A stretch of 64,000 nt of DNA from Larimichthys crocea. Lineage: Eukaryota; Chordata; Actinopteri; Sciaenidae. Each line of letters starts with the position of its first letter. Within the stretch, counting starts at the first letter, position 1. The stretch lies in NCBI RefSeq assembly GCF_000972845.2, contig NC_040028.1, positions 12,553,744-12,617,743 on the forward strand, written 5' to 3'. The position numbers and the translations under genes were made by a program. Below are positions 109 to 48,409 of the stretch, piece by piece. The notes below the pieces were generated by a model. It ran no database searches and was not told the DNA's origin. It worked only from the letters and a program-made list of their open reading frames with translations.

Positions 109-369
109 CTGGCAGTAACGTGGTTGGTCTTCCTCTCTCAGTGTGATGTAGATCATTTTCATCCTTTACTGTAATCTCACACACATATTTCATGCTCATG
201 TCCTCAGGTCCGATGTTGAATATGATAAAGAGGAACTTTTTGGGATTGACTTCAAGACAGGTGATGTTCTCACTCTTTTTCACTCCTTTCTGGCAGAGTA
301 TGTTTCCAGAACTGTCTGTTCTGAGAGTGAACAGAGATCTATTAGACAGAGCACATCTGCCAGCATGAG
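109..369 (-). CDS. ICOS-like exon 2 (single V-type Ig domain exon)
   Basis: The 261-nt exon is open throughout and bounded by CAG at 372..370 and a GTACG donor at 108..107, phase 1 to phase 1. It carries all four cysteines of the domain. The acceptor tract is A-rich and weak, so the exact 5' boundary is uncertain. Unlike ctla4 and cd28 here, this V domain is not split by an intron. Confidence 0.6.
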
Positions 370-2155
370 CTGAGTTTCTGATTTTTATTTTTTTAAATTA
401 GTTTAAAGGAATAATAATACATATTTTGGGGAACACTTAATTACATGCCAAGATTTAGATGAGATGATTGAAACAGTACAACTGACATACTTTCCTTGAG
501 TATTTCTAATCTATGGTACTTCATACTTCTACTCCATCACATTTCAGAGGGAAATATTGCATGTTTTACTCCACCAGTTATTTACACTTGCAAAAATGTG
601 ATATGCTTATATGAAATCATGCAATACTCTAATACTAATAAACTCAGAAGTACCTCTGATTGGCTCTACATTGATTAACTACAATATTACAATGCTCTTA
701 CAATGTTTTACTCTGTGAAAGGAACCATTCATTCAACATTCAACATCGGCCAATGCCAATCACAGCCTTCTATTTATCTTGGTGCATTATTTACTAAGTG
801 ATTCTTAATGACACATTAAGTAAAGTAACATAAATTGACAACGTTTTATTTATCAGGAGGCAATGTGTGCAATATATTCAGTCTCCCTCTTATCGACAAG
901 GGCAGCTTACATCTGGGAACAGTTAGTGTTAGTGTAACAAAAGACCAGTGTAGGCAGTGTAACTGAGGAGGAGGGTGGATTTTTTATTTCTTATTCGTCA
1001 ATTTGATTTTACTTGATTCTCAGTGTTTACTCATAAATGTGATCACCTTTTTTTTTTTTAAATAAGCTGCTTTACAAAACACTGAGTTAGACCTGGAGGA
1101 GGATCGTTGCAGCCGTTGGCTCATGGTCTTGTGGTTAAACCGCAAGCAGTACACTCCTTTCCTCTCTTTGTTTTTCTGTGCCAAGATAGACTGGGTAAAT
1201 ATGTGGTCTATTCTCAAACGAGACCTTCAAAAAGTGGTCTCAAAAACCAAGACCAAACAGCAGCACTACAACACTGTTCAGTACTTTCAGTCAGGCTACT
1301 GTTTCCAGTCTTTATGCTCGGATCTGTTTAAACCTGATAACTTTTAACATTGTACTGTGATGCTAATTTACTGGTTTCAAATTCGCCGATTTGAGTGAAG
1401 TGTGGTTATGCAGATAAGGCGGTGCAGTGCAGTTTTGGTATTTGTTTTGGGAGCTGCTGAGACCAGCTCTAACCAGCTCTATACTTCCTTTGATAAGAAA
1501 TCATGAAGCCTTTTTTAAAGCAACTAATTTGATTAAATGAGAAACTGACGACATTGATGGCAAAGAGAAAATAGACACAAAGAAGTTCAAACTGGAGTTA
1601 AATGCGATAAAAAGCTGCATGCATGAACCTTCTTCATTTGTGTATTTCACAGATCCCCCCAAAACACACACACCACTAGAATACATACGGTGACATGCTG
1701 AGGAGTTGAAAGTCTTCCACAGAGGTGACTTCTGCGGTGTGTTCACAGCTGATAGACGCTAACTCATCTTGGTTTACAGTTCGATTCTGTGGTTGAATCA
1801 CTTTAAAATCTGATAAATGAAAAGGATTCAGCTTCAACATTCATGCTTAACTAGCTCGTCTTCTGTTTGTGAATCATTATGGTAATATCCTGTGTGTTGC
1901 TGCTGTGTGTCAGAAATACAAATAATTATACACCAAACATGTAAACCATCAGCTCAGATTATTTGCCGGATCTTTATGAATGGTCGCCATTATCATTATA
2001 ATACAAGAAATAAATATAAGTATGAAAAATGTTTTTTAAAGTAAGAACTGTATATTCAAATAGAAATTAGTTTTAAAGTGAGTCCTACCATAGCAATAGA
2101 TGAGGCTCAGATGAGTTATGAAGACGATAAAGCTGCTGAAGCTGTGTGCTGTCAT
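109..2155 (-). CDS. ICOS-like / CD28-family receptor, 5' part of gene (exons 1-2; continues left of window)
   Basis: Visible coding exons are 2155..2089 and 369..109, both ending in phase 1. The predicted product starts with a hydrophobic signal peptide (residues 1-22) and continues into an Ig V-type domain with four cysteines at residues 28, 48, 60 and 86. CD28, CTLA4 and ICOS have two cystine bridges in this domain; the motif ILC (46-48), a later C, a run of aromatic and aliphatic residues (FLFIIF, 68-73) and YVC (84-86) follow human ICOS in order and approximate spacing. Family knowledge: these are T-cell surface receptors that bind B7-type ligands. The gene lies third after cd28 and ctla4 on the same strand, the position of ICOS in mammals. 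The proline ligand loop (FDPPPF in human ICOS) is not visible; the loop is charged and ends in a Gly-Arg-Pro-Thr stretch. The part before the first cysteine is very short, so a small exon may be missing. Stalk, membrane and tail exons lie outside the window. Another CD28-family or V-set receptor is possible. Confidence 0.55.
480..690. repeat. dispersed teleost repeat with AGTACTT-like blocks
   Basis: The segment has alternating 'tacttctactcca' and 'ttactccaccagtta' blocks and the phrase 'catttcagagggaaatattg'. Related blocks occur at 38340-38960. It lies in the intron between the two visible exons of the ICOS-like gene. The remainder of that intron (691-2088) shows no further gene-like content to me. 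Confidence 0.4.
2089..2155 (-). CDS. ICOS-like exon 1 (signal peptide)
   Basis: ATG at 2155..2153 opens 22 codons rich in Phe, Ile, Leu and Ser, a typical signal peptide ending near LIYCY, followed by a GTAGG donor at 2088. The donor is phase 1, as in exon 1 of cd28 and ctla4 in this window. No competing upstream ATG in frame was chosen because the hydrophobic stretch begins directly after this Met. Confidence 0.5.
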
Positions 2156-2159
2156 CTCA

Positions 2160-3269: not shown

Positions 3270-3950
3270 CTTTACAGGTACTTGGCTTCTGGGGACTCAC
3301 TCATCAGCCTAGCGTTCAATTAGCGCCTTGGCCACGCAACAGTGATAAACTCTGTTCACATGGTGTGTGCCGCCATTGAAAAGGTCATGATGGAGAAGTT
3401 TTTACCACAGCTGACTACAGCAACATGGAAAGACAAAAGTGGGAAAAGTGGAACTTCCCAGATTGCCTGGGAGCACTTGATGGCAAACATGTCATCATTC
3501 AAGTGCCACCCAACTCTGGTAGTCAGTATTTCAACTACAAAAAGACTTTTCATTCCCTTTGAAGCACTACCTGTAGAGACCCTACCCAGGACAGAACCTA
3601 ACCCATAAAAAGAGGATTTTCAATTACAGGCTCTCCAGAGCGAGGATGAAAATGCCTTTGGCATTTTGGCGTCACGTTGGAGGATTTTCCACCGGAGGAT
3701 TAACCTGCACCTCAAAAACGTGGACACACTTGTAGTGGCAGCATGCATCCTGCACAATTTCCTCCTTGTCCCAAGTGAAAATGTGCAGCTGCTAGCAGAG
3801 GCAGAGGAACTTGGGAGACACATGGCACCGGTACGAAACATGGGAGGAAACAGAGCATCAAGAGAAGCCTGTGCTATCAGGGAGAGCTTGGCTACTTTCT
3901 TCACCTCCCCTGAGGGCAGTGTGTCCTGGCAGGATAGAATGATTTAAATG
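3270..3950 (+). pseudogene. Harbinger/PIF (HARBI1-like) transposase, deleted and frameshifted
   Basis: The first part (about 3275-3565) reads, across frames, as the N-terminal half of a PIF/Harbinger transposase. It contains WNFPDCLGALDGKHVIIQVP, with the first catalytic Asp in ALDGKH, followed by PPNSGSQYFNYKKTF. The second part (about 3620-3947) resumes with FNYRLSRAR, then after a one-base frame change ENAFGILASRWRIF (the family's catalytic Glu region), and ends in VDTLVVAACILHNFLL. The middle third with the second catalytic Asp is deleted, and stops interrupt the frame. It is therefore a dead copy. Intact transposases of this family excise and insert DNA at 3-bp AT-rich targets. Terminal repeats were not delimited. 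Confidence 0.8.
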
Positions 3951-4886: not shown

Positions 4887-4936
<50 letters not shown>

Positions 4937-15227: not shown

Positions 15228-17085
15228 TCCACTCCTCCCAGTCATTGTAATACTCATATTCCCTGAAGTACCGGTCGAGGTGGTGGAGTTGGAGCCATAT
15301 TTGACTCAAGTCTTTTAATAAATCCTAAACCTAAACTAAATTATAATTCATTTGAAAGCCTTGTTCTTAGCCTCACTCACCCAACCTGGAAAACATCGTC
15401 AACAATCAGGAAGACCCAAACGCAGTACAATCTTACTGAGTGTTCTTTATTACACTTCAGGAAACAGAACAGGCAGGAACACAGTCTCTGTAAAAGTCTT
15501 CTGCTGCAATTCAAAAGTCCTAGGCACAAGCTCCGAAGGTGGCAGATGAGAATTCGCCCACGGCGGAGTAGGAGCGGCAAGACGCCAAACAGATGCAGAC
15601 GAAATAATAGCAGGAAACTCACAGGCTGGGTTCGGAGTCAGGGACGGAAAGCAGTCAGGTTTACCAGGGCAGAGACAAAGAGCCCAGATCAGGAACATGC
15701 GGGTCGGAACCAGGAAAATCAAGCCGAAGAGGACTGCTGGAAAGTTCTGCATAACACTAAGACAATCTAGCACTGGGCTGGTATAGCTTAAATAGTGGCT
15801 GGATGCTGATGAGGAGCACCGGAGTGCACAGGTGAACAAAGTTGGCTGATGAGAGGGGAGTGGCCAGCAGGGAGAGTGAGCAGAGGGGAGGAGAGTGGGA
15901 AATTACTGGCAGAGCAGCAGAGGAATGGATTGTGACAATTACAGCCAATTTTATTTGTTACAGTATATCGAGCTCCAGGTCCTTATTCTGATTTTTTATC
16001 TGAATTTGCAGAATTTGCATCAGGCTTGATCCTTAAAACAGATAAAGTAATTATTGTAGGTGATTTTAACATTCATGTGGACAACCACAATGATAGTCTT
16101 AGTACTGCGTTTATCTCTCTATTAGACTCAATTGGCTTTTGTCAAAGTGTAAATAAACCGACTCATTGTCTGAACCACACTCTTGATCTTGTTCTTTCAT
16201 ATGGCATTGAAATTGATAATATAATAGTCTTCCCACAGAATCCTCTTCTGTCTGACCATTTTTTAATAACCTTTGAGTTCATACTACCGGACTATAAGCC
16301 TTTGTGTAGAAGCTTCTACAGCAGATGTTTATCTGATAGTGCTGTAGCCAAATTTAAGGAAGTGATTCCTTCAGCATTGAATCAAATGCCATGTCTAACT
16401 GTAACAGAGGACTTGTCTACTTCCTTTAGCCACCCACAAATAGACCATCTTGTTGATAGTATTACAGGCTCATTACGGACAACTCTAGACTCTATTGCAC
16501 CTCTGAAAAAGAAGATAATTAAACAAAGAAGGCTAGCACCATGGTATAGCCAGCAGACTCGTAAATTAAAGCAAGAGGCACGTAAATCTGAACGCAAATG
16601 GCGTGCCACTAAACTGGAAGAATCTCATCTAGTCTGGCAAGATAATCTCAAAACATACAGGAAGGCTCTCCGTAATGCCAGAGCAGCCTATTACTCTTCT
16701 TTAATAGAGGAGAATAAGAACAACCCCAGGTTTCTCTTCAGCACTGTAGCCAGGCTAACAGAGAATCACAGCTCTACTGAACCATCTATTCCTTTAGGTC
16801 TAAGTAGCAATGACTTCATGAGCTTCTTTAATGATAAAATTATAACTATTAGAGACAAAATCCATCACCTCTTGCCCTCAACAGGCATTGATCTGCATTC
16901 TGATACAGCAAGTTTTGAAACAGCTGTAAAACCTGATATGTATTTAGACTGTTTTTCTCCCATCGACCTTCATCAAATAACTTTAATAATTTCTGCATCT
17001 AAGCCGTCATCCTGTCTCTTAGACTCCATCCCAACCAGGCTGCTCAAGGATGTTTTACCTCTAGTTAGTCCTTCTTTATTGGATA
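15228..17085 (+). mobile_element. L2-like LINE, ORF2 endonuclease to start of reverse transcriptase (interrupted by an LTR)
   Basis: The frame starts near 15270 with GRGGGVGAIFDSSLLI, typical of the front of an APE endonuclease in L2/CR1 LINEs. It is cut by an LTR-like insert at 15397-15937 and resumes at about 15945 with YRAPGPYSDF. The long ORF 16026..17108 then carries VIIVGDFNIHVDN (catalytic Asp and Asn block) and LLSDHFLITF (the SDH motif). A linker ends in SCLLDSIPTRLLKDVLP, the first reverse-transcriptase block. At about 17085 it stops abruptly where a second, different LINE begins. Its 3' tail seems to reappear at 19235-19520. Confidence 0.8.
15397..15937 (-). mobile_element. probable solo LTR of a retrotransposon, inserted in the LINE
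   Basis: This segment interrupts the LINE endonuclease frame. Read on the minus strand it begins TGTCACAATC and ends GATTGTTGACG, nearly inverted ends with an expected final CA mutated. A TATTTAAG box lies about 145 bases in, and an AATAAAG polyadenylation-like signal near the 3' end, the layout of an LTR. No internal gag or pol sequence follows and no clear target-site duplication was found, so the family is not determined. It is a TE relic and not a host exon. Confidence 0.55.
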
Positions 17086-17089
17086 TGAT

Positions 17090-19233
17090 GGATATGTGGG
17101 GGATCTAAACCTTGATTGGTTGTCATCAGCCTCAGATGGCCTGAAATCTATCTGTGATTCATTAAATCTAAGCCAATTAATAGATAACATTAAATACCCT
17201 TCAAGATCATCGCTTCTTGATCTTATAATAACAAATGCCCCCCACAGGTATACTGATGCTGGTGTCTTCGGGAATGATCTGAGTGACCACTGTGCCATTA
17301 CAGTCATCAGAAATGCCAAACTCCCAAAAACTAAACCACGAATCTTACTTAAAAGAGATTTTAAACGTTTTCATGAGCAGGCATTTTTGCATGATTTATC
17401 AAATCATGAGTGGGAACTTATCTCCCTCCTTGATGATGTCGAGTTGGCCTGGAATCTCTTTCATTCTGAATTCTTGAAGTTAATTCATAAACATGCTCCC
17501 TTACTTAAGTTTAGGATAAAAGTGCGAAACAATCAGTCGTTTTCCACTGAAATTGGAAACCTTCTCAAAGAAAGAGATCTTGCCTGGGCCAGGACACGAA
17601 AAACAAAAACTGAGGCTGATTGGATCATTTTCCGTCAGCTCCGCAATAAATGTACCTCCTTAATTAAAAAGATCTAAATCTGAATTTTATTTATCAGAAA
17701 CCACCAATAACCTAAATGATCCCAGGAAATTTTGGAATATTGTGAAATCTGCTTCTGAAGCTATATCCTCTACTGAATTACCAAACTTCTTGGTCATTGT
17801 TACGTCCCCAGTTGGGCCAGGGGATGAGGGAGTAACATATAATTAAATAACCGGGAGCTTTGACAAAAAACGATAGACAATGTAACCAATTCAATAGGTT
17901 TATTTACAAAAAATAAGGCAGAAAACGAATTAACTCAAGACGGACTCCCCCAAAACACAGGGAGCCGAATCGCCAGCTTCTTTCGTGGCTCACTCCAGAA
18001 CCAGAACGCACACACACACACAGCTACGCGGCTCCTGAGACAGATCGCTCGCACACACACAGTTACCACCCGGTCTCTGCCACACAGACCAACCGCAGGA
18101 TGAGAGAGAGAGAGGGAGAGCGGCTCCACTTCCTGCCTATATATGCCCCGCCCGCTTGAGTGGACACAGGTAACCCAGATCACTCATCAGTGCGAAAAGG
18201 AAAAGGGGCAGAACCTAGAGGGGAGGAGCAGAGGAGAAAAGAAAGGCGAACACAAACAATAACACAGGCCAGCGGTCGTAACAGTCATAGACTCTATAAA
18301 CCTGACAGATAAATGTGCCATGCTAAATTACTTTAATGAACATTTTATCACAGCAGGACACTTATTTGATTCTCTTAACAGTGTTCTTAAAAGCAATGTT
18401 TTAACTGATGAACCTTCTGTTGTAAGCCGTCCCCCTGTTGATTGTTCTTTTCATTTTTAGCCTGTGTCTATTTCTGAGGTCCATAGTGCGCTAAAAAAAT
18501 TGGACTCCAAAAAATCAGCTGGTCCAGATAGTTTGGATCCATTTTTTCTAAAGCTGGCTGCTGACTTAATTGCTGAGCCCTTAACTAATATTTTTAATCT
18601 AAGCCTCAGCACAAATAAACTTCCTAAAGTCTGGAAATCAGTGTTTGTCCTCCCACTGTTAAAAGGAGGCGAACCCTCAGTTGTTAATAATTACAGACCT
18701 ATCTCTAAATTATGTATTCTGGCAAAAGTATTTGAAAAATTGGTCTGTGATCAATTGAAGGATTTTTTTGGAATCTCGGAACAAGTCCCCTTCAGTCAGG
18801 TTTTAGAAAGCATCACAGCACTACTACTGCTGCCCTAAAAGTCCTTAATGACGTGTTTGAGGCTTTGGACTCGAGAAAGTTCTGTGTGGTGCTGTTTATT
18901 GATCTGTCTAAGGCATTTGACACTGTAGATCACAATCTTCTGCTAAAAATTCTTGGCAGGAATGGCGTCTCCAAACAAGTTGCCTCTTGGTTTGCCAATT
19001 ATTTGGCCAATAAGACACAATGTGTTCAGATGGCTGGAGTTAGCCTTTCTTGAGGTCACAAAAGGCGTACCTCAAGGATCAGTATTAGGACCCATACTAT
19101 TCATAATTTACATTAACGATTTGTGCACAAACATGTCAAATGCCTCATACCACCATTATGCCGATGATACTGTCATTTATTGTTCCTCACAATCGATTGC
19201 TCAGGCTTTTTTAATTTTTACAGTCTGCTTTTG
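17090..19233 (+). mobile_element. second non-LTR retrotransposon (endonuclease C-part, reverse transcriptase), nested; interrupted by a solo LTR
   Basis: The ORF 17096..17677 begins with GDLNLDWLSSASDGLKSICD and holds LLDLIITNAP and LSDHCAITV (the SDH block of an APE endonuclease). After the solo LTR, 18464..18838 carries LKKLDSKKSAGPDSLDPFFL and VVNNYRPISKL of reverse transcriptase. The frames 18853..19234 carry [24 protein letters not shown] and YADD, the catalytic aspartates. It is frameshifted and contains stops (for example near 18460), so it is inactive. Its codon pattern and sequence differ from the L2-like LINE on either side, which suggests that it inserted into that LINE. Confidence 0.8.
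17798..18283. mobile_element. solo LTR (486 bp) with 5-bp target-site duplication
   Basis: The unit begins TGTTACGTCCCC and ends GGTCGTAACA, so it has TG...CA termini and a short inverted end. GTCAT flanks it directly on both sides (17793-17797 and 18284-18288), the size expected for LTR-retrotransposon integration. It splits a LINE frame that reads across it. No internal coding region is present, so recombination between the two LTRs presumably removed the rest. Orientation and family (Gypsy, BEL or ERV) cannot be set from the sequence alone. Confidence 0.8.
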
Positions 19234-19529: not shown

Positions 19530-21030
19530 CAAGGCAAGTTTATTTGTATAGCACAATTTGTACACAAGGCAATTCATAGTGCTTTACAGAGGCAAGGAAA
19601 AACATTTGACATTAAGACAAGCAATAGCAATAGAAATAAAAACAGCAAATTTGAAAACATTTTAAAACATTAAACGAATCACTGGATTATGATTACAAAT
19701 TCTTTAAAAGAGCTCAGTCATAAGCATGTGAAAATAGAAAAGTTTTTAACCTGGTTTTAAAAGTGCTAAGAGTTGGGGCTGATTTCAGTCCTGCTGGTAG
19801 TTTGTTCCAGTTGTGAGCAGCATAACTGCTAAATGCTGCTTCACCGTGTCTGGTTTGAACTCTGTGCTCCACTATCTGACCTGAGTCAGTAGATCTCAGA
19901 GCCCTACTGGGTCTATATTCTACTAACATGTCATTTATGTATTGTGGGCCTAAACCATTCAGTGATTTGTAAACTAGTAGCAGAACTTTAAAATCTATTC
20001 TGTGGCTAACTGGGAGCCAGTGTAAAGACTTAAGAACTGGGGTGATGTGTTCTGATCTCTTTGTTCTGGTCAGAACTCGAGCTGCTGCGTTCTGAATGAG
20101 CTGCAGCTGTTTGATACTTTTTTGGGGGAGTCCAGTCAAAAGACCATTACAGTAGTCAAGTCTACTGGAGATGAAAGCATGGATCAGCTTCTCCTGATCT
20201 GTTTAGGACATAAAGCCCTTAACTCTGGATATGTTCATAAGTTGGTAGAAGGCTGTTTTGGTGACTGATTTTATGTGACTGTTGAAAGTCAGATCTGAGT
20301 CTATCAACACGCCAAGGTTTCGGACTTGGTCTTTAGTTTCTAGAGACAGTAACTCAAGGTGTTTACTGACAGCAACCCTCTTCTCTTTATTGCCAAAAAC
20401 AATGACCTCAGTTTTTTCTTGATTTAACTGAAGAAAATTTTGGTTCATCCAATTTTTGACTTGCTCTAGACCAGTGGTCCCCAACCCCCGGGCCGCGGAC
20501 CGGTACCGGTCCGTGGATCAATTCTTGTGCGGCCCGGTACTGCCGCATTAAAATTGTCAAGCGTTGACCGGTCCGCAGTTAGGAAAAGGTTGGGGACCAC
20601 TGCTCTAGACAGTTACACAATGACTCTATAAGACTGCAGTCATCTGGGGACAGCGCAAGATATATCTGTGTGTCATCTGCATAACTATGATAGTTGACAT
20701 TAGAATTCTGCAGAATTTGACCCAAAGGCAGCATATATAGGCTGAACAAAAGGGGTCCAAGAACTGACCCCTGAGGAACCCCACATGTCATAGCCACTCG
20801 ACCTGATTGATTACTTTCAATGGTCACAAAATAACTCCGCTCCTCCAAGTAGGACCTGAACCATTCTAAGACTGTTCCATGGAGTCCTGCCCATGTTTCC
20901 AACCTGTTCAGCAGTGTGCTGTGATCCACAGTGTCAAACGCAGCACTGAGATCCAGCAGGACCAGAACTGATAGTTTGCCTAAAGGGTTTTTTCTGGGCA
21001 AGTTTTTCCTCACTTGAACCAAGGGTCTAA
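19530..21030 (-). mobile_element. another L2/CR1-like LINE, 5'-truncated, with a hAT MITE inserted
   Basis: Minus-strand frames in order are as follows. At 21022..20579 is reverse transcriptase with [27 protein letters not shown] and YADDTQIYLA. At 20484..20203 is VKNWMNQNFLQLNQEKTEVI and VRNLGVLIDSDLTFNSHI. At 20139..19714 is the C-terminal domain with [36 protein letters not shown] and [13 protein letters not shown] 3' tail of the 'aaggcaagtttatttgtat' type lies at 19530-19600. It is related to, but clearly diverged from, the copies at 5062, 34471 and 39798. The copy is truncated near 21020, where the GAT array begins. Confidence 0.85.
20472..20602. mobile_element. 131-bp hAT MITE with perfect 8-bp target duplication
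   Basis: Terminal inverted repeats CAGTGGTCCCCAACC and GGTTGGGGACCACTG. The flanks are CTCTAGAC on both sides (20464-20471 and 20603-20610), an exact 8-bp duplication as made by hAT transposases. The interior is GC-rich with no ORF. It interrupts a LINE frame, so it inserted after that LINE. Confidence 0.9.
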
Positions 21031-21068
21031 GTACTGAGGGTGTTGAAGATGATGATGATATGGAGATG

Positions 21069-21116
<48 letters not shown>

Positions 21117-21275
21117 GATGATGATAATGGAGTAATGATTATGATGATGATGATGATGATTTGATGATGATGATAATGGAGTAATGATGATGATGATGAT
21201 GATGATGATTTGATGATGATAATAGAGTAATGATGATGATGATGATGGAGTGATGATGATGATGATGCAATCCTA
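21031..21275. repeat. long (GAT)n / GATGAT minisatellite
   Basis: About 240 bases of GAT/ATG trinucleotides broken by a recurring 'ttgatgatgataatggagta' type unit, giving a higher-order period of about 50-60 bases. Confidence 0.85.
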
Positions 21276-22703
21276 CACTACAATCCTACTGCCATTATAT
21301 TTATATATGATTGTCTGTTTGTGTATCTGATAATTGTGTGCAATTAAACAAAATCAAGCAGTATGAATGACTTGTACATTAATTTATTTAAATCCTTTTT
21401 TGCTTAACCATAAAAACTGTAATACTACGTATATAAGACTGAACAATTCCAAATGTGCAATGGTCTCTGCATATAAACATGACAGATGACATATTAAAAG
21501 AAGCAGAAACATAAACATGAACTCCAGCTGGTACTGGTGTAGTTAACTTCCTTTCTTTAGGCTCCTACACACATTACTGCTTACCACAGTCATCTCATTA
21601 CTTACTTACTTTATGTGCAGTATTACTGTACCTTTAGCACTATATTATAATAGCCTAGTCACTTTTATAGTGGTGATGATGCATATGAGAATGCTCATTG
21701 ATATGCAACAGTTGTTGATCTATCAGATTCATGCATGTTTTTACAAAATGTATTTCTCAGCAAAGAAATAACCAAAGATAACATGTGATTTTGAGTGTGC
21801 ATAAAATTCCCATTGTCACTTTTGTAATTTAAAATATAATATGTTGTATGTAGTGAATGCAGATTTCAGAATTAATTCACTGTATTAAAAACAAAAGCAA
21901 AAAAGACAGCTATGAATCACAGGATGGTAGTGAGTACTGTAAAATAACAGGCATGAAACAAATTTGCAGCAAACACAGCACCCTACAACGATGGAAGCAA
22001 GCGAGAGCAGCAGCTTAACAGAGTTGGAGTCTACCAGACCTAAGAAGCCTCGTCCTTTTTCCAAGAAACTCTGACCTTTCCGTGATACAGGACATACAAA
22101 CTGGGCCGTAAATTCATTATAAACAGCATAAACATTTGTCTGTGATGAGCTGGGTTATCAAGGAAGCAACTAGTTTCAAGACATATCTGGTGAAGTGACA
22201 GGAGTAGAGCTAGCTGGCATGCTAACACAACTGTATTCAGACCAACCAGGTGTGTTCGGACGTTTGGCCACTGTGAAACAATGAAAAAAATAGTTTTAGT
22301 TCTGAGACAGAAACAGGCTAGGTACACACAAAAAAGCAAACAATGTTACAGCAGCTGGGAGAGTTTCACAGTTTATAGTGCACAGACTCTGTTTTGATAG
22401 TGCTCAGTCAGGAGATAGTGTTTGTGGAGGGTGCTGACGGTGTGTTTAGTTCAGCTGCCCCACACAGTTGGTTGAGAGATTAATTAAGAAAACCTAAAAC
22501 CAAATTAATGCAGAAATCACATAATGGAAATGCTACTGCCAGCGAGTCTAATGAAACACTGACAACTGCTTTATAGAATAAAAATATCTACTAGCTGCCG
22601 CTGCCACGAATTGAGCCAGCCCTTTCTCTGTGTTTGTGTGCTGGACGTAACCGCTATGAAACAATCTCCCTCACTCTGATTTACCACGTATGTATCTCGA
22701 CCA

Positions 22704-24561: not shown

Positions 24562-24821
24562 GTGAGTATTCTTGGGGTAGAGGAGACACATTTGTGTGGT
24601 TTTCATGCAATGTTGTCACGTGAAAATGCAGAAGGATCCAATTTGTGAAGCATGCCAGGCAGGGGTCTTACAATGTCCCTCTTCCCTCGTTCACACTGTA
24701 GTGTCTGCAAATGGAAAACACATTGATCTGAATGCAAGAAATAACAGAGGACAATTAGCTTTTATCAGATTGTACAGAAAGAAAGTAAATAATGTTACTG
24801 CTACTAGAACAGCTTCTTCTG

Positions 24822-25458: not shown

Positions 25459-25622
25459 CTGGAAGTAGATAATGATGATGAGGACAAACATGACCAGTAT
25501 CACCAGTACAACCACAGGAACACTGACTGCTTCTGTCTTCTCATCACCCTCATCAACCTCTCCTCCAATACCCTGCAGTGCAGTCTGTCTGTGAGCCCCC
25601 TGCATGGGACAGTCAGGGCTTT
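25459..25622 (-). CDS. ctla4: ctla4 exon 4 (stalk and membrane segment)
   Basis: Acceptor TCCACAG at 25629..25623. Encodes the stalk with SPDCP, an acidic Gly/Asp/Glu stretch, and a Val/Ile/Leu membrane helix ending IIIIYFQ at the donor CAG|GTCAGA (25458), phase 0. If this donor is skipped, reading continues for about 17 residues to a stop, giving a very short tail without an obvious tyrosine signalling motif. Confidence 0.85.
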
Positions 25623-28600
25623 CTGTGGACAAAGGATGAGGACAGAGTTAGACTGAAAGAAGGACAGGGACACATGTGACCTGTGAGCTCACTCTGCATG
25701 TCATGCGTGGAAGTCTCACCTAAGACATGAATGAGCGTGCCGTTGCCTGTGAGCTGCAGGTACGGTGGTGGGTAGAAGACTTCAACCTGACAGCGATATA
25801 TATCTGTGTCTGTGGCTTGCAATCCGGATACCGTCACCTCCACAGCTCCCTCTTTCAAATAAGCAGAGCACTGCACCTGAAACATAAAATAAACATGAGT
25901 TTGGATCCAGCATTTAGGAAATGCATTTTCACTACAATATTTTATTTAGAAATGATTCCAAACCAGAACACAATGACTGTTTTTCACAGGACATGAAGAA
26001 AATGAATGGTAACAGCAGTGGATCTTGTGTTCTCTACACCCATATAATGCATGTATGGCTGACCCTTATGGGCAGGAGGAGGATAAATAATCCTGTTTGT
26101 GTGAGTTTTTTCTTGCATTGGTGTGTTTTTAAAATGTAGTAGCCCATATTTATCAAAGACGTATTCTTATCCATATTTTGGAATGCTGGAACTAGATTTT
26201 TTTCTACATAAAGGCATCTTTTGCTTCTTAAAATTGCATTTTTCACATAAATGCTTAAAATCCAATGGGCAGGTCTACATAAGCATATAATGTTGCCCTG
26301 TCCTTTTGAACTGTATAAACTTTAGCACCACCTTCAGGCCAAACTGTAGACTTGTTGACAAAATATTTCAGAATCTGAAATATGCATATATCACCATACA
26401 TTTTGTTGAATACATTCATTTCCCCCAGTGGATAAACCTGTCTGTCAAAGAGGGCTTTATAATTTATAACTGAATTGAACATTGACATGAACCTTTCTTC
26501 AGGATCAACCTCAGGACTAAACTAACAATGTTTCTAGTAAAACTCTACGAATATTAAAGTTGTATGTTGTTCATTTTTTTTAACAAAGTTGGTGGCCTAA
26601 GCGTGTCATCAAGCCACCCTTTAAGCACCGCCCACAAAATCCTAGACTGAAAACTGGTGAAAAATAGTTTGAACCTGTTTTCAGCAACTATATTTCCATT
26701 TCCCTTCTCCTTACACCTTTAATGTGACAAAACATTTCCCCTGTTGCCATGATTGAAAGAAAATTGATTAAGTGTTTAAATATCCATACATGTAAAACCA
26801 TGTTCATGACTAAATAAGCAACAATAATAGTTCATGGAAAGTCTTGGTCATTTCTATACTCTTTAAAATCAAACACTGAGCTAATCTGCTTCATCAGACC
26901 CAACTTTCATCAGACTCTGATTCAAATGTTATAATTGGTGCACAGAGATAAGTGACATCATTGTTTCAAGGAAAAACCTCTAATGGAATATGAAAAAGGT
27001 TTCTAACTGTGGCAAAAAAAAAAATTCAATTCATTTAGGATCTTCATCTCTTAGAATCTGATCTAGAAAATGTGTTAATATATTACTTTATGTTGGTTAA
27101 AGTTGGAATAACATCCATTCATCCACAACTTACCTCTTCCTCCTTCTCCACTCCTGTCTTGTTCTTCTCTGTGTAGTTGAGTATAGACGAGCAGAATTTC
27201 TCTGTGCCATGGAGGCCTTTCAGCAGAGTCACACGGAGCTCTTCTGGGCTGGGGTAGGGGTATAGCTGGCTTTGGTCGATGGGGGGCTGGATCTGGTGGT
27301 AGGAGGGTCGCGGTTGGATGAAGCACTGGACTTGTGCTGTACCATTGGTGCTCACCACTCTATAGGGCTGGATCACCTTCACAGCTGGCAAAAAAAAGGA
27401 AGGTGAGAGGTGAAATCGTTTTTGTGTCCTGCTGTACTGAACCCAAAAAGCAAAGACAAGACAGACAAGACCTTTCCTTTTTGAAAAACAACAACTTAAC
27501 AGTTTGCAAACTTTTCACAGCCACACTTGACGTTGAAATTTTTCATTAAATGTTTTTGTTGCTGAGAGTTAAAAATGTAAGCCAATCATGTAAACTGAAA
27601 ATGGAATTACATAACATTTGGCTTGATTTTCGGAATCTCTGTCAAAGGTGACCTACAAAGTCAAAATTCTCCACACCCACACGTCACTTCCTGTGTTTAA
27701 CATATGGCGACATCAGAAAATGAAACAGTGGTTTGCATCTCTCTGCACAAGTCATGTCATTGCAGTAAAGCTGCAGGGTTTTGAACATGCTAACCAATGC
27801 TAAATAAAACCAGGTAATTCTTTAATGCTGGCTAGTCAAGAAGTGGCAAGAAGACAAGCAAACGCTCTCAGTCTAGTCTTTTCACTGAACAAACAGAGAA
27901 AAAAAATGATGTCTACCCTCCCAGACAACCCATAGTCTGCAAACAAGACAGGAAACAGCCCATAACCTCAAAATACTGGAATGTAATCACTGAATTTCAA
28001 ATTGCTTCCTTTTTTTTGACTCAACCGGTTGGAGCAGATGACTGTCCACCAATGGACGGGGTTCTACTCAAGGTTTCTGCCTGTTAAAGGGAAGTATTTC
28101 CTCACCACCGTAGCCAAGTGCTTGCTCATGGTGGGAATTTTTGGGTCTCTGTAGATAATATTATTTAAAGTACAACCTAGACCTGCTCTGTATGGAAACT
28201 GAGATAACTTCTAATATGATTTGGCGCTATATCAGTGAAGTTGAACTGAAACATTGAATTGACTACTTGTTACTTGTTAACATATTCTATGTTAAACACT
28301 GATCTGGAACCACCTTTAGCCAGTGAACTGGCTAAATTGCTTTTACTTGGTCCACCACAGAAGGTCAAGAGAAACATTATTATCCCTATAAGTATAATGC
28401 AGAAGTACACAAAATAGTCATAAATCTAGATATAAATACAAAAATACAGTATGCAATCACACCTCAAACTGATGCAACGATAATGCTAAAATGCATTTTG
28501 CTCCATAAGCACTTTTTACTATAATCTCCACCTGTAAGTGGGTTAAAGGAGTAGTTTGACATCTTGTGAAATATTTGATTTCTTGCTGCGTTAGATGTGT

Positions 28601-28978
28601 TATATTATATTGATCTTCTCATCTAGCATTGGAAATACTCCTAAAATTGATACTACTCTTAACAATGTCTTGAGTGGCATTTACTATCTATGTTCATCAT
28701 TTGTTGTAGGAAGGACACTGCTCCACCATCACAGGACATATCAGTTTGTACAGAACAGAATCACAAAAAATGTTTTTCTATAAGTATGAAAAATATTTGC
28801 CACATTCAGTGTTACTCAGGCTGTGGCTTTTGTCACATGATTTGCAAAAAAGTGTTACCAATCATGGTACTGTCATAGCATCAGCATAAGTCTGTTTATA
28901 CTCACCACTCCACACAGGCAGGCAGAGGCTGAGGACTGTCAGCACAATCCATTCCATAACACAGTGGGCCAGGAACAT
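25459..28978 (-). CDS. ctla4: CTLA-4-like inhibitory T-cell receptor (exons 1-4; tail exon not found)
   Basis: Coding exons are 28978..28906, 27384..27134, 25876..25720 and 25622..25459. Phases (1, 0, 1, 0) join into 215 codons without a stop. Residues 1-24 form a signal peptide. The V-type Ig domain follows with four cysteines at 45, 89, 111 and 137, matching the two disulfides of CTLA4 and CD28. Residues 131-137 read DTDIYRC, and the ligand loop is FYPPPY (142-147), almost the MYPPPY of mammalian CTLA4 and CD28. It continues into GNGTLIHV, cf. GNGTQIYV in human CTLA4. A stalk cysteine (165, SPDCP) would allow a disulfide dimer, and residues about 192-214 form one membrane segment. CTLA4 binds CD80/CD86 and restrains T-cell activation. 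Oddities: a roughly 20-residue Pro/Gln/Tyr-rich insert after the first cysteine, an intron inside the V domain, and no identified tail exon. It sits between cd28 and the ICOS-like gene. CD28 is the alternative name, but loop and cysteines favour CTLA4. Confidence 0.88.
25720..25876 (-). CDS. ctla4: ctla4 exon 3 (V domain, second part)
   Basis: Acceptor TTTCAG at 25882..25877. Encodes Cys 111, strand E/F with VEVTVSGLQATDTDIYRC, the FYPPPY loop and strand G ending HVLG. Donor G|GTGAG at 25719, phase 1. Confidence 0.9.
26000..27000. other. ctla4 intron 2; nothing recognised
   Basis: Unique-looking AT-rich intron sequence between the two V-domain exons, with no recognisable TE or exon. Confidence 0.5.
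27134..27384 (-). CDS. ctla4: ctla4 exon 2 (V domain, first part)
   Basis: Acceptor CCAG at 27388..27385; the first residues AVKVIQPYRVV resemble the start of mature CTLA4. It contains Cys 45, the Pro/Gln-rich insert (about residues 46-71), then ELRVTLLKG, cf. EVRVTVL in human, and Cys 89. The donor GAG|GTAAGT at 27133 is consensus and phase 0. Confidence 0.88.
28023..28255 (+). repeat. LINE 3' end in ctla4 intron 1
   Basis: Sequence of the type 'caaggtttctgcctgttaaa' followed by 'gatttggcgctatatcag' and 'tgaagttgaactgaa' is the 3' UTR end of a common teleost L2/CR1-like LINE. No coding part remains. Confidence 0.6.
28906..28978 (-). CDS. ctla4: ctla4 exon 1 (signal peptide)
   Basis: ATG at 28978..28976 gives 24 residues with the hydrophobic core WIVLTVLSLCLPVW, then donor G|GTGAG at 28905, phase 1. 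An in-frame Met at residue 8, directly before the hydrophobic core, is an alternative start. The first Met is chosen because the sequence is open from it and the length is usual. Confidence 0.85.
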
Positions 28979-40886: not shown

Positions 40887-40973
40887 TTAAACTTTGCAGG
40901 GTTTCCTGAGCTCTCCAGGTCTGGTGTTGATGTATATGTTCGTATCATCCTCTTCTCTCTTCATCTTACTATT
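40887..40973 (-). CDS. cd28: cd28 exon 5 (cytoplasmic tail)
   Basis: A good acceptor (TGTTCCTCAG) precedes 28 codons and TAA at 40889..40887. Tail: NSKMKREEDD, then TNIYINTRPGELRKPCKV. YINT is the only tyrosine motif. The C-terminal part is much shorter than in mammals, and no second proline-rich SH3 site like PYAPP is present. Confidence 0.85.
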   Translation of the reverse strand, partial: NSKMKREEDDTNIYINTRPGELRKPCKV

Positions 40974-41478
40974 CTGAGGAACACAACACAGAAAGAGAGA
41001 GAGAAGTTTACTTACGGTAGCAAATACTTTTTCACAATGTGTGCAGGTGACTCCATGTTTTCATTCTTACCCATAAAACAATGGCAACACTGGTGACTGT
41101 CAGGCTGTAGGCCAATAAAACACCACATCCCGCCCACATCGCCACGTTTGGGATGAGTGGAGGCCTGACTGCACAGCTCTGATTGGTTACCGGGAGAGTG
41201 TCATTGACTGTCAGCGAGGACTGCTTTTCTATAAATTGATCAGAACAGAATTTATACATCATTATTAATATATCACATACTGTGAATATCATCATATGAT
41301 CACGTTATATAAAGCATTTTACCTGCCACTATGACCTCAGTGACGTGACAGTCCTCTCTCTGTGGTGGAGGGTAAATCAACTCCCTCTTGCAGATGTACA
41401 CTCCACTGTGGTTGGCTGTGACTTTAAACTGACCTGAGAACACACTGTCTGCAGAATATAACTGCTGTGTGTGTGTGT

Positions 41479-41525: not shown

Positions 41526-44500
41526 TAATTGCAGACTCCCTGTGCACAGTTTGTGCTGTGGTATGCCCACAGTTTCACAAGCATCAACATGAGGGGCCTC
41601 ATGTACGAATACTTGCATGGATTTCCTACTGAAACTCGGCGTAAACCCAGGAACTGTCATATGCACAAAAAAATTCAGATGTATCAAAGTGTGCGTACGC
41701 ATGTATCCAAGCACGTTTCTTTTCTACATCCAGTCAATGTGGAATTGAGCACACATGCAACTCCTCCCTGTCCACGCCCCCATTTACATATGCAAATCTA
41801 TTTAAATAGGCCCTGGACCTGAGATTCACCTCTTTGTCCGATGAGATAACGGGATGAACAAAGGAAAGAAAATGAATTTCACAGAGTCTGAGCTAAAGAT
41901 TCTAGTGAATGAAGTGGAGATTCTGTTTGGTTCCTGTCAACAGGGATAAATTTGACCAAAAAAAGACGTGAGTGGGAGCGTGTGTGTGAGGCTGTAAATG
42001 CTGTGGGATCCGAGCAGCGCACACACAGGTGTGGACAGGTGTGGCGCTGCGGCTGACATTTTACGCCCGCTTTTACTGACAAGAATACTGAACACAGGGA
42101 GACAATCAGGGGCTTGTTAGAAAGCTCTGCAGCTCTAATTTCACCAGCAGAAAATAAAGAAAACCAAAAACATGATATTTGAATGCGCACATGCCCAAAT
42201 GTGCATTGCACTGGTTTACTTACAGGACAATTAAACGAATAGAAGCCACCCATCGCGCACCGTGCCAGCCTCCAGCCTGTTCCCAACCATGCTGTTAGTC
42301 ATAATGAAGGAGTCAGGCCACCTTGCCACGATGTTAGTTAGCTGCATTTGCGATTACATTAGGGAAACCGGCTCTCGCTGCAAATTGCACTTTAATGTCG
42401 GCCTGTTCAACATTGTTTAGGAATCTGATGTACCAGGAAGACATTCGGATGATTCCGTCCCACACAGCTGGCATGGCTCAGCTCAGGGTTGACTGGCACA
42501 CGTGCGTACGCCAGCCATGAAGTTGGCGTGGGGCACGCACATTTCCACGATCATTTCATGTCTGATACATCTGAACTTGAGCGTCTAAAAGGACGTACGC
42601 CACGTTTTTGTGCGTACGCAACCTTTGTACATGAGGCCCCAGCACACTACACACCACCTTGTGGTGCAGTGGTGGTCAGTTTAGCGCAGACCTGGGCATT
42701 GTACGGCCCCCGGGCCACATAAGGCCCTTTGGTTGACTCTGACCCGCGTAAGGTTAATTGGAAATTACAAAATAAACATGTTTTCTTACCTCATACATGG
42801 ACTAAAACTACATTGCTTTTATTTTGAAGTTGTTTTTATTAACGTATGTAATGACGCAATACGTTTATCAAAACGTTTATCAAAAAATTGCTAAAAACAG
42901 TAAGCCATTCTCAGAGGGGGAATTTGTCAAGTGTGTCAAGAGTGTTTGGTGGACTCTGCAGCACTAATATGCCCTGACAAAAAAGGAGCATTTGAAGTCC
43001 CGCTGTCCAGGCAAACCGTGATGAGAAGGATCGAGGGAATTGCGGGAAATTTGGAGCTTCAGCTGCAACGCGAAGTGGCAAGTTTTGACTTCTTCTCCTT
43101 GGCTTTGGACGAGAGCTGTGATGTCCAGGACACAGCCCCAGCTTCTCATATTTGTCCATGGGATAACAGACTTCAAGATTACGGAAGAGCTGGCCTCCGC
43201 AGGTACTCATCCATGTTAGGAGCATTGCATGGTGAGTTTTCAAGGCGGTTTGAAGATCTCAGAACAATCAAGGGTGAAATGCACATGATTTCCTCTCCCT
43301 TTACCTGCAGTGTGGATAATGCACTCAGTGATGTTCAGCTGGAGCTCATTGACCTGCAGTCTGATGCAGTACTGGCAGAGTACTTTAAGTCAGGATCTCT
43401 GCTGGATTTCTACTCTTCTCTTAAGGAGGAGAACTTTCCAAACATGAGGAGACATGCTCAGAAGATGTTGGTTCTCTTTGGCTCTACCTACATATGTGAA
43501 CAAACATTATCAATGATGAAGTTTACAAAATCCAGGTATAGATGCTCTCTGACTGATGATCATCTGTCAGCTGTGCTTCGCATCTCCACCTCAAACATTC
43601 AACCTGACTTTGATGGACTCGTTAAAGCCCAGCAGAAACTAGATTTCTCTCACTGAACAAGAAAAACGAACTTAAAAACACCAAATTAGGTGGTTAGACT
43701 ACAAATGTAGGCATGTAAAGGCACCAACTAGCAGTGAACTGGGACACTTTCTTTCTAAAGCCTTTTTCTCAAAACCACAGTTCAGTGATGTTCAATGACA
43801 GTAACTTTAATATGATGTGTCTTGCTTAATGTTTGGAGCACAAAGACAATATTGTGATGTCCTTAGAATGCTAAGAACCTCTTTCCAACAGTATTTGAAA
43901 CTCAGAATGCATTTTGGAGTGAATGTGACTGAAAATGTTCACTAATATAAGTCATAAATAGTAAAAAAAAAAGAAAGAAAAAAGTGTTCATATTTTGTTT
44001 GCCATTGGTTTGGGAAATTTTATTGAATAAAGGATTTTTTTGTAAGGCAACCTCACTTTTTCATTGCTAATTATAACATATAGCCTACTCATACCAGCTT
44101 GTCAAAAAAAATGCTATTTACTGCTTTTTATAAAGAAATACAATTAATATTATGCGGAATTGATTGCAGCCTTTTGGACCGGCCCTCTACAATATTTTCT
44201 GTTTCTCATGTGGCCTCATGGAAAAAATAATTACCCACCCCTGGTGTACTGGGGGTGATGAGATAATTACATTGTCCTATAAGTACATCCAACTGGACAG
44301 ACGTCAAGGGTGCTTTGCTCACATTCTGAGTACACGTCGAGCAGCTTGAGTCCACCACTGCTGAAGAGTAAGTGTACTCTGCTTTAAAATCCCGTCTGTG
44401 CTGCCAACTATTGTTGGATTGCTGCATGCATTGTCCAAGTTCAATGGAACTGTGTACCGCAGCATGTTTTATTTTTCAATTCAAGTCAAATTTTATTTAT

Positions 44501-44795
44501 TTAGGTGAATATCACGAAGAGCTTTACGATCTGTGTGGCATAAGTGTGTGAAAATGTTCTATAAAGAAAGCCACACTTGCAGGAGATCTCAGTGCAGTGC
44601 AGCTGTGGAGCAAAGGTGAGATATTGTGGCTTCCTAAAGTTGCAATTACACTTCTTGTAATACCACATCACATTCAGCAAAGTCCACTCCAAATGTCTGA
44701 GAGCCAGAAGAACGTGTCAAGCTCACGTCTTGTTTGCTCTTGCGGTTGCGAATCAGTCAGACCTTTGCAATATATTCTAAATACAGAGGCATATG

Positions 44796-44835
<40 letters not shown>

Positions 44836-45027
44836 CTGACTGACCTTACTCATATGTATATGGTTGATGTAGCTTTCATTGAAGAGGAGCAGGTACTTCA
44901 TCTCTGAGTTGGTGGCCGTGATAGATGGACACGAGATGGATGTGGTACTGTCCTTTGACACTGTGACGACCAAGCGGACTGACAGACAAGCAGAAAAAAA
45001 GCATTGAGATGTATTATCAAAATGTGT

Positions 45028-45059
<32 letters not shown>

Positions 45060-48000: not shown

Positions 48001-48409
48001 TAATTTTGCAGTGGTCTCTTAATTCTTTCCAGAGCTGTACAAGATGAGCATTGTCATCTTATTTTGCTTCTGAATAGTCTATTTTAATATTTTCTGCAGA
48101 TCTCAGAGCACTGCGGGGTGAAGAACAGTCCTCTCTCAGTGTTACTGCAGTGAACAGAGAACAGATCAAATCGCTCCAGGATGTATTTTATCAAACTCTT
48201 TTCCTGATTCCACATTGCTGACAGAGCACATGAAAGCACTCACAGTCATTCTGAAAGTTGTGATGTTGCTTCAAAATGTTCTGTCTCAGCATTTTCAGTT
48301 GTAACTGTTTTTAATTGTAAAGCAATTCCAGCATCTTCTTACCTGAGCATTTGTGGAGCTCACCATCACTCAAACACACCATCACCATCACCAGGATACC
48401 GACTCTCAT
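40887..48409 (-). CDS. cd28: CD28-like T-cell costimulatory receptor, complete (5 coding exons)
   Basis: Exons are 48409..48343, 44978..44845, 41461..41323, 41228..41071 and 40973..40887. All splice sites are GT-AG, phases (1, 0, 1, 0) agree, and the total is 585 nt, 194 residues plus stop. A signal peptide (about 1-17) precedes a V-type Ig domain with Cys 39 and Cys 91 (SGVYIC). The ligand loop reads IYPPPQ (96-101), where mammals have MYPPPY. A stalk Cys 132 fits dimerisation. The membrane helix (about 145-166) includes GVLLAYSLTVTSVAIVLW, cf. GVLACYSLLVTVAFIIFW in human CD28. The tail is basic, then has YINT (180-183), the YxN type of SH2-binding site (YMNM in mammals, PI3K and GRB2). CD28 delivers the second activating signal to T cells on binding B7. 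The inner cysteine pair of mammalian CD28 is absent from the V domain. Gene order with ctla4 supports the call. Confidence 0.9.
41071..41228 (-). CDS. cd28: cd28 exon 4 (stalk and membrane segment)
   Basis: Acceptor TTTATAG at 41235..41229. Encodes two N-glycosylation sites (NDT, NQS), stalk Cys 132 and the membrane helix. Donor TGG|GTAAGA at 41070, phase 0. Confidence 0.88.
41323..41461 (-). CDS. cd28: cd28 exon 3 (V domain, second part with YPPP loop)
   Basis: The acceptor CAGCAG at 41467..41462 is preceded by a CT/GT dinucleotide run that serves as the polypyrimidine tract. Encodes SGQFKVTANHSGVYICKREL and then IYPPPQREDC. Donor G|GTAAAA at 41322, phase 1. Confidence 0.88.
41468..41524. 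repeat. (GT)n/(GA)n run overlapping the cd28 exon 3 polypyrimidine tract
   Basis: On the minus strand this reads (CT)n then CACACACACAGCAG, directly before cd28 exon 3. The microsatellite therefore appears to act as, or adjoin, the splice acceptor tract. Confidence 0.8.
41593..42640 (+). mobile_element. Harbinger-like element with Myb/SANT-type ORF remnant, in cd28 intron 2
   Basis: Terminal inverted repeats GGGGCCTCATGTACGAA (left) and, inverted, GGGGCCTCATGTACAAA (right) enclose about 1.05 kb. A plus-strand frame near 41855-41946 reads MNKGKKMNFTESELKILVNE followed by VEILFG, the start of the Myb/SANT-like DNA-binding protein that accompanies Harbinger transposases. Stops follow soon after. 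Several 'gcgtacgc' words lie just inside both ends. No transposase is present, so it is non-autonomous. A matching target duplication was not found. Confidence 0.65.
42687..44243 (+). mobile_element. hAT transposon of GTF2IRD2-like family with in-frame internal deletion, in cd28 intron 2
   Basis: Ends CAGACCTGGGCATTGTACGG (left) and, inverted, CAGGGGTGGGTAATTATT (right). Flanking octamers gtttagcg and gtgtactg agree at 5 of 8 positions, perhaps a worn duplication. ORF 42931..43656 (241 codons) starts in the catalytic core (FFSLALDESCDVQDTA, a DExxD-like part). It jumps directly to the C-terminal third and ends with the hAT dimerisation block LVLFGSTYICEQTLSMMKFT. The deletion kept the frame open, but the enzyme lacks most of its catalytic fold. 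It is on the strand opposite to cd28. Confidence 0.75.
44798..44833. repeat. (CA)n microsatellite next to cd28 exon 2
   Basis: A pure CA/TG run 12 bases beyond the exon 2 donor, on the intron side. Confidence 0.9.
44845..44978 (-). CDS. cd28: cd28 exon 2 (V domain, first part)
   Basis: A strong pyrimidine tract and CTGTCAG acceptor (44985..44979). Encodes RLVVTVSKDSTTSISCPS, with Cys 39, then MKYLLLFNESY. The donor AAG|GTCAGT at 44844 keeps phase 0. A second possible donor (GTAAGG) lies 5 bases earlier but would break the frame. Confidence 0.85.
45020..45055. repeat. (TA)n microsatellite
   Basis: An AT dinucleotide run in cd28 intron 1. Confidence 0.85.
45191..45578. repeat. inverted-repeat unit (MITE-like) in cd28 intron 1
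   Basis: The left arm at 45191-45246 (containing 'gattaggatgtaatg' and 'gcattttcttacctttac') and the right arm at 45516-45577 are inverted copies over nearly 60 bases. They differ mainly by a 5-base insertion. The arms enclose about 270 bases of non-coding sequence, so the whole resembles a small foldback or MITE. Confidence 0.6.
45579..46198. other. cd28 intron 1; AT-rich
   Basis: Contains a (GATTA)n stretch near 45999-46035. No exon recognised. Confidence 0.5.
46199..46516. mobile_element. Tigger/pogo-type MITE (318 bp)
   Basis: Left end CAGTGGTCCCTCGTTTATCG and right end, inverted, CAGTCGTCCCTCGTTATATC form terminal repeats. TA flanks both sides (46197-46198, 46517-46518). The 'aacccgcaataaacgaaat' and 'cgcgaaaagtgaaccgcg' sequences inside are typical of this widespread family. 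No ORF. Confidence 0.85.
46536..48037 (+). mobile_element. full-length decayed Tc1-like transposon (about 1.5 kb) in cd28 intron 1
   Basis: Terminal repeats CAGCTCTGGAAAAAAATATG (left) and, inverted, CAGCTCTGGAAAGAATTAAG (right), with TA on both flanks (46534-46535, 48038-48039). Plus-strand transposase remnants: EGHSEHQVASILKISKTAVH (helix-turn-helix), FINEKQTRARLRFAK, KFGGGS with a following GVTSARLES (the WG block), and fragments to about 47610. Stops and frameshifts are numerous. It lies 19 bases from the MITE at 46199-46516. Confidence 0.75.
48343..48409 (-). CDS. cd28: cd28 exon 1 (signal peptide)
   Basis: ATG at 48409..48407 starts MRVGILVMVMVCLSDGELHK, a short hydrophobic signal. It ends at the donor CAG|GTAAGA (48342), phase 1. 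The next residue after splicing is Val. The upstream 5' region lacks an obvious TATA box. Confidence 0.85.

What the first reader, a model, noticed from the sequence alone, without database searches (positions are those of the whole stretch)
109..48409. Conserved CD28 - CTLA4 - ICOS-like array in a teleost
Three V-type Ig receptor genes lie on the minus strand in the order cd28, ctla4, ICOS-like, the same relative order and orientation as in human. cd28 and ctla4 are supported by complete splice-consistent reconstructions. The array suggests that this costimulatory cluster predates the fish-tetrapod split and has stayed together despite heavy transposon invasion.
Basis: partly seen in the sequence, partly recalled or inferred. 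Interest (0 to 1): 0.85.

Follow-up and report, generated by a model that had tools for sequence, protein, structure and literature searches.

The report
Third CD28-type gene beside fish CTLA4
In a spiny-rayed bony fish the immune-switch genes CD28 and CTLA4 still sit in a row with a third, overlooked receptor gene in the place where other vertebrates keep ICOS, a gene that a recent survey reports as apparently lost in such fish.

Summary
The window is from a percomorph teleost, almost certainly Larimichthys crocea. On the minus strand it carries complete cd28 (48409-40887), complete ctla4 (28978-24603) and the first three exons of a third V-type receptor gene (2155-109), with canonical splice sites. 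The third gene is real: 71 further protein hits, 36-59% identical. In 9 of 9 species where both genes could be placed it lies on the same contig as ctla4; in 3 the locus tags are consecutive. The receptor has a V-type domain, a transmembrane YxxxxT motif (63 of 72 hits) and a YVxM-type tail motif (42 of 43 alignment rows with a tail), but no proline motif in the ligand loop (0 of 72). Pfam barely recognises it, probably why it was missed. Quiniou et al. 2024 report ICOS apparently lost in teleosts and the three-gene cassette conserved except there; this locus contradicts at least the second statement. Whether it is ICOS itself is unresolved: position, orientation and YxxxxT favour it; profile comparison favours CTLA4; trees reject nothing; two ICOS motifs are absent. 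I file it as a new CD28-family member in the ICOS slot, not as proven ICOS.

The parts
2089..2155 (-). third gene, exon 1: start codon and signal peptide
   Evidence: identical to P0078 residues 1-22; donor GTAGGA
1689..1809 (-). third gene, exon 2: first half of V domain
   Evidence: acceptor TTATCAG, donor GTATGT; matches P0078 and the 4 orthologues tried
109..320 (-). third gene, exon 3: second half of V domain; later exons lie outside the window
   Evidence: acceptor CTCTCAG, donor GTACGT; matches P0078 and the 4 orthologues tried at 54-63%
28906..28978 (-). ctla4 exon 1: signal peptide
   Evidence: tblastn with fish CTLA4, splice check
27134..27384 (-). ctla4 exon 2: first half of V domain
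25720..25876 (-). ctla4 exon 3: second half of V domain with VFYPPPY and GNG
25459..25622 (-). ctla4 exon 4: stalk and transmembrane
24603..24704 (-). ctla4 exon 5: cytoplasmic tail and stop
48343..48409 (-). cd28 exon 1: signal peptide
   Evidence: splice-consistent frame
44850..44978 (-). cd28 exon 2: first half of V domain (alternative end 44845)
   Evidence: splice-consistent frame only
41323..41448 (-). cd28 exon 3: second half of V domain with LIYPPP (alternative start 41464)
   Evidence: tblastn with human CD28 and CTLA4
41071..41228 (-). cd28 exon 4: stalk and transmembrane with YSLTVT
   Evidence: tblastn with human CD28
40887..40973 (-). cd28 exon 5: cytoplasmic tail with YINT, stop
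   Evidence: splice-consistent frame

Best explanation
The left gene is a functional, conserved third member of the CD28 family that percomorph teleosts keep next to ctla4, in the slot and orientation of ICOS. It most likely makes a T-cell surface receptor: one V-set domain, a proline-rich stalk that often carries a cysteine, a YxxxxT transmembrane dimer motif, and a tail whose YVxM would recruit PI3K, so a positive costimulator working beside CD28, while teleost CTLA4 (which lacks the YVxM) competes or dampens. Because its FG loop has none of the prolines with which CD28, CTLA4 and ICOS touch B7-type ligands, it probably reads a different or strongly diverged ligand. Most likely it is the teleost descendant of the ancestral third cassette gene, the one called ICOS in gar and tetrapods, after fast divergence of the ligand face. 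Shown: gene structure in the window, conservation, linkage, motifs in orthologues, predicted V fold. Inferred: T-cell surface location, PI3K signalling, costimulatory sign, ligand change, orthology with ICOS.
For: 71 homologues at 36-59% identity, the named ones all percomorphs by my reading of the names; four rows come from short (964-1937 base) 'lgn' contigs, of which three (P0088, P0095, P0118) read as spliced. YxxxxT in a hydrophobic stretch in 63 of 72 hits, against 6 of 77 ctla4 hits, there always YFQV[GR]T at the helix edge; YxxM in the last 40% in 58 of 72, against 1 of 77. YV/IxMR in 42 of 43 rows with a tail; V-domain cysteines B 44, C' 43, D 42, F 44 of 44 rows; stalk cysteine 31 of 44. 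AlphaFold V domain confident, mean pLDDT 86.8; 6 of the first 9 Foldseek rows are CTLA-4. The V profile scores human CTLA4 and human ICOS above all but 1 of 1000 shuffles each. PMC11599192: the ancestral cassette has three genes, gar/sterlet ICOS-like proteins carry YxxxxT and fish CTLA4 does not. The V-domain intron differs in position and phase from that of ctla4 (phase 2 versus 0), against a recent copy of ctla4. A zebrafish gene whose symbol NCBI gives to orthologue P0138 (si:ch211-67e16.3) is listed as a T-cell marker in PMC12431003 (one passage).
Confidence: 0.6

Rival explanations
1. The third gene is an old tandem copy of ctla4 (or cd28) made within ray-finned fish, which took over the slot after ICOS was lost; it kept or regained the YxxxxT and YVxM motifs of older CTLA4.
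For: Profile comparison prefers mammal and fish CTLA4 (E 1.4e-7 and 1.5e-6) over ICOS; the domain starts with VIQP as fish CTLA4 does; YVxM resembles mammal CTLA4 YVKM, which PMC11599192 reports in sterlet and eel CTLA4; Foldseek's first row and 6 of the first 9 are CTLA-4; the best tree joins it weakly to fish CTLA4 (43/47).
Against: Needs loss of ICOS and a duplication into the same slot and orientation; fish CTLA4 lacks YxxxxT (PMC11599192); V-domain intron not shared with ctla4, so the copy would predate those introns.
Confidence: 0.33
2. The third gene belongs to another V-receptor family (NITR, CD28H-like or PD-1-like) that happens to sit beside ctla4.
For: No loop proline motif; Pfam V-set not reached; VIA-align's first rows are PD-1 and TCR V; a NITR gene lies ~0.1 Mb from medaka ctla4 (PMC2442602, passages).
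Against: V profile against human PD-1 within shuffles (61 of 1000 reach it) and hhalign E 0.018; tail has YVxM, no ITIM/ITSM noticed in the rows read; a GxG pattern follows the F strand in only 4 of 72 rows; two extra V-domain cysteines as in CD28/CTLA4/ICOS (that comparison recalled) in 42-43 of 44 rows. NITR and CD28H sequences were not compared.
Confidence: 0.07
3. The exons are a decayed remnant or a gene-prediction artefact.
For: Only a 5' part lies in the window; L. crocea has lost the D-strand cysteine shared by 42 of 44 rows; P0078 is annotated 'partial'.
Against: Open frame with canonical splice sites, conserved across many percomorphs, transcript-like contigs P0088, P0095, P0118 from unnamed species.
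Confidence: 0.03

Closest known systems
ICOS of gar, sterlet and tetrapods
   Same: third gene of the cassette, same strand as cd28 and ctla4 in the window; single V domain; YxxM-type tail motif in orthologues; YxxxxT in the transmembrane as reported for gar and sterlet (PMC11599192)
   Different: no P-[P/A/L]-P in the FG loop, YVxM instead of EYMxM, weak sequence similarity to mammal ICOS (hhalign E 4e-3)
CTLA4
   Same: nearest by profile comparison and in Foldseek's first row; VxQP start; extra pair of V-domain cysteines; YVxM as in mammal CTLA4
   Different: no PPPY, GxG pattern in only 4 of 72 rows; fish CTLA4 lacks YxxxxT and YVxM, which this gene has; different V-domain intron
CD28
   Same: YxxxxT transmembrane, Y-based tail
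   Different: no PPP; window cd28 tail reads YINT; V profile against human CD28 reached by 57 of 1000 shuffles (window cd28: 8 of 1000)
PD-1 and CD28H group
   Same: single V domain, stalk, transmembrane, tail; PD-1 also lacks loop prolines (PMC11599192)
   Different: no ITIM/ITSM or EIP motif noticed in the rows read; other synteny according to PMC11599192

Membership tests
CD28 family (IgV-TM-tail receptors) | single extracellular V-set domain, transmembrane helix, cytoplasmic tail | tested here: met
   AF2 model of P0078 and alignment of 44 rows; 4 of 72 hits (P0102, P0104, P0112, P0118) carry two V domains by a B-strand pattern
CD28 family (IgV-TM-tail receptors) | tyrosine signalling motif in the tail | tested here: met
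   YV/IxMR in 42 of 43 rows with a tail; the L. crocea tail itself was not seen
CD28 family (IgV-TM-tail receptors) | conserved synteny of the cd28/ctla4/icos cassette | tested here: met
CD28 family (IgV-TM-tail receptors) | conserved motif near CDR3 (PPP in CD28/CTLA4; not in PD-1) | tested here: not met
   no PPP or P[PAL]P after any Y-x-C in 72 rows. It is one of the criteria of PMC11599192; the same paper says that PD-1, a member, lacks loop prolines, so I do not treat it as defining for the whole family
ICOS | third position of the cassette, same strand | tested here: met
ICOS | P-[P/A/L]-P in the FG loop | tested here: not met
   0 of 72 rows
ICOS | EYMxM tail motif | tested here: not met
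   mostly YVEM or YVVM instead
ICOS | phylogenetic grouping with ICOS | tested here: inconclusive
   p-AU 0.41 with human and mouse ICOS; known CTLA4 and CD28 orthologies were not recovered in the best tree either; no gar or sturgeon ICOS available
ICOS | fold closest to ICOS | tested here: inconclusive
   rows listed hold CTLA-4, PD-1, antibodies and TCR, tied
ICOS | binds ICOSL | not testable with these tools
   needs a binding assay
CTLA4 | [MLI][YF]PPPY with GxG | tested here: not met
CTLA4 (ctla4 of the window) | PPPY with GxG in the V domain | tested here: met
   VFYPPPYLQLTGNGT
CD28 (cd28 of the window) | PPP without GxG, YxxxxT transmembrane, Y-based tail | tested here: met
   LIYPPPQ, YSLTVT, YINT; hhalign best against mammal CD28, E 5.4e-10

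The most novel reading that the evidence does not exclude
Teleosts never lost ICOS. They carry a fast-evolving orthologue, mostly annotated as 'uncharacterized protein', in its original slot beside ctla4; it is a T-cell costimulator with a PI3K tail whose B7-type ligand-binding loop was rebuilt, and it may reach from zebrafish (si:ch211-67e16.3) to percomorphs.
Probability: 0.5. Interest if true: 0.78.

Novelty: new member of a known kind. Interest (0 to 1): 0.62.

Why it matters
ICOS drives T follicular helper cells in mammals (recalled), so its reported absence bears on how T-cell help works in teleosts. A conserved receptor in the ICOS slot, hidden because it lacks the proline motif used to recognise the family, gives fish immunologists and the aquaculture field a concrete gene to knock out and a ligand to look for. 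It also shows that a motif-based survey can report a loss where there may be divergence.

Tried and rejected
Human CD28, CTLA4, ICOS and RAPH1 tblastn against the window: found ctla4 and cd28 exons, nothing for RAPH1 with E below 4 and nothing convincing at the left gene. Searches of the PDB and Pfam with the left exon alone: only PDB rows at E 0.96-1.9, no Pfam family. PDB profile search with A1: transmembrane resemblances to insulin receptor and Fc receptor gamma, antibody chains, and CTLA-4 at E 0.96. ICOS chains were not among the 50 rows listed in each; this is no evidence either way. PDB search with window cd28: CTLA-4 chains, 4n8p and one Fc receptor at E 0.006-0.053, no CD28 chain among the 20 rows. 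Structural control with fish CTLA4: a poorer model (pLDDT 65.6), yet CTLA-4 ranked first and second and stood clear of antibodies, unlike the left gene. Tail comparison with ICOS ('DPNGEYMFMR' against 'DPENSTYVEMR') looked striking by eye but failed the shuffle test (276 of 1000 shuffles as good). Tree: cannot place the clade. A link with medaka NITR24 was considered and dropped: it is ~0.1 Mb from ctla4 with olfactory genes between (PMC2442602, passages); its sequence was not compared.

Selections: alignment A1 holds 44 of the 72 hits (short, partial, isoform and double-V rows, and some near-duplicates, left out by hand); A2 holds 30 of the 77 hits; trees used 22 and 14 of the A1 rows and 14 and 10 of the hits. 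Counts are on all 72 (and, in 46, all 77) and include partial models and isoforms. In one search the loop pattern failed or caught the membrane helix in some rows, so repeats it; there the stretch after every Y-x-C was read in all 72 rows, membrane matches included.
Full report
What the window is. The best fish matches of the ctla4 V domain are percomorphs (76% to Monopterus albus, Lates japonicus and Pampus argenteus). The left gene's joined exons equal residues 1-133 of L. crocea protein E3U43_016594. L. crocea is a sciaenid percomorph teleost. Species identity is an inference from that one identity.

The array. Reading the minus strand, cd28 occupies 48409-40887 in five exons, ctla4 28978-24603 in five exons, and a third gene starts at 2155 with three exons down to 109. 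The gaps between genes are 11.9 kb and 22.4 kb. Internal exon boundaries are GT/AG and each spliced frame is open. ctla4 has VFYPPPY with GNG, as the family requires; cd28 has LIYPPP without GxG, YSLTVT in the membrane and YINT in the tail. By profile comparison the best mammal match of fish CTLA4 is CTLA4 (E 3.5e-18, CD28 close behind at 7.1e-17) and of window cd28 is CD28 (E 5.4e-10). A PDB search with window cd28 gives CTLA-4 chains, 4n8p and one Fc receptor at E 0.006-0.053 and no CD28 chain, so the cd28 name rests on motifs, position and profile comparison.

The third gene. A search with one exon found only the L. crocea protein. A search with that protein found 72 rows including itself, mostly called 'uncharacterized' or 'hypothetical', a few oddly named, two called V-set domain proteins by UniRef, and one turbot row with a UniRef name beginning 'Inducible T-cell costimulator'. 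The precomputed Pfam column is empty for 71 of the 72. Alignment of 44 rows shows a signal peptide, a V domain with four conserved cysteines, a proline-rich stalk, a transmembrane helix with YSCVIT, and a tail with ENSTYVEMRKAP. Counts: YxxxxT 63 of 72, YxxM in the last 40% 58 of 72 (the 72 include partial models and isoforms without a tail), YV/IxMR 42 of 43 rows with a tail, stalk cysteine 31 of 44. In the ctla4 set the same patterns matched 6 of 77 (always YFQV[GR]T at the helix edge) and 1 of 77. The FG loop reads like YECEFTVKKDDLDYTETGTPT; PPP or P[PAL]P follows no Y-x-C in any of the 72 rows, and a GxG pattern follows in 4.

Linkage in other fish. Locus tags are consecutive in Scortum barcoo (L3Q82_017272/017273), Pampus punctatissimus (PAMP_003490/003489) and Pampus argenteus (PAMA_002933/002932). 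Order and strand are known only for the window.

Introns. All three genes split the V domain by an intron, at phase 2 in the third gene, phase 0 in ctla4, and phase 1 (or 0) in cd28, and at different places in the domain as I read the translations. In human the V domain is one exon (recalled). The introns were therefore probably gained separately, and the third gene is not a recent copy of ctla4.

Literature. PMC11599192 (abstract, introduction, methods, results to the start of the PD-1 section, and discussion read) reports ICOS in gar and sturgeon, apparent loss in teleosts, and a three-gene cassette conserved in jawed vertebrates except teleosts; its membership criteria include motifs near CDR3, which this gene lacks. 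It also reports cd28 and ctla4 together on eel chromosome 3, so teleost linkage of those two is not new. [quoted passage not shown] in this window they are 12 kb apart on one strand. PMC12431003 (one passage) lists si:ch211-67e16.3 among T-cell markers of zebrafish tumour tissue; that symbol is the NCBI name of orthologue P0138, so T-cell expression of a zebrafish orthologue is likely but rests on NCBI's naming. The passages seen of PMC12092003, PMC13337447 and PMC12151841 say nothing of a teleost ICOS. Ten searches of the open-access library (several lists capped, at 15 of 3,120) gave no listed title or abstract start that reports a teleost ICOS or this gene; subscription papers and supplements were not searched.

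How it probably works. By analogy with CD28 and ICOS (established knowledge), YVxM would bind PI3K p85 after phosphorylation, YxxxxT would pack a homodimer helix, and the stalk cysteine, where present, would lock it. That gives a costimulatory receptor. The rebuilt FG loop means that the ligand cannot be guessed from the family.

Verdict. The array is real and the third gene is a conserved, unreported (within the searches named) CD28-family receptor in the ICOS slot. ICOS orthology is about even odds and needs gar and sturgeon sequences.

Noticed in passing
P0102, P0104, P0112, P0118: Three poeciliid orthologues of the third gene and one unnamed row have two V domains in tandem, so the V exons were duplicated in that lineage.
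   Followed up: partly
window 109-320 (P0078 residues 79-84): L. crocea has lost the D-strand cysteine kept in 42 of 44 rows and has another cysteine five residues later, right behind an N-I-T sequon.
   Followed up: partly
V-domain introns of all three genes: window 1688-321, 27133-25877, 44849-41449: Each gene splits its V domain at a different place and phase (2, 0, and 1 or 0), suggesting separate intron gains.
   Followed up: partly
window 3609-3944, 15936-17105, 42904-43653 (+) and 20582-21277 (-): Transposon pieces by Pfam: DDE_Tnp_4, endonuclease-reverse transcriptase, hAT dimerisation region (slightly below Pfam's cut-off) and RVT_1; the other 5 of 9 ORFs tried gave no family at E 0.01.
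   Followed up: partly
protein names: Some fish ctla4 and third-gene proteins carry odd names in public records, such as 'FYVE, RhoGEF and PH domain containing 1', 'Complement receptor type 2' and 'protein cappuccino-like'.
   Followed up: no
Gasterosteus aculeatus P0080 and P0147: Stickleback has two named loci for the third gene on contigs of different length, perhaps two assemblies or a second copy.
   Followed up: no
window 49000-64000: No coding exon of raph1 was recognised there by one human query; long overlapping ORFs near 58.5-58.9 kb look GC-rich and could mark a promoter of the next gene.
   Followed up: no
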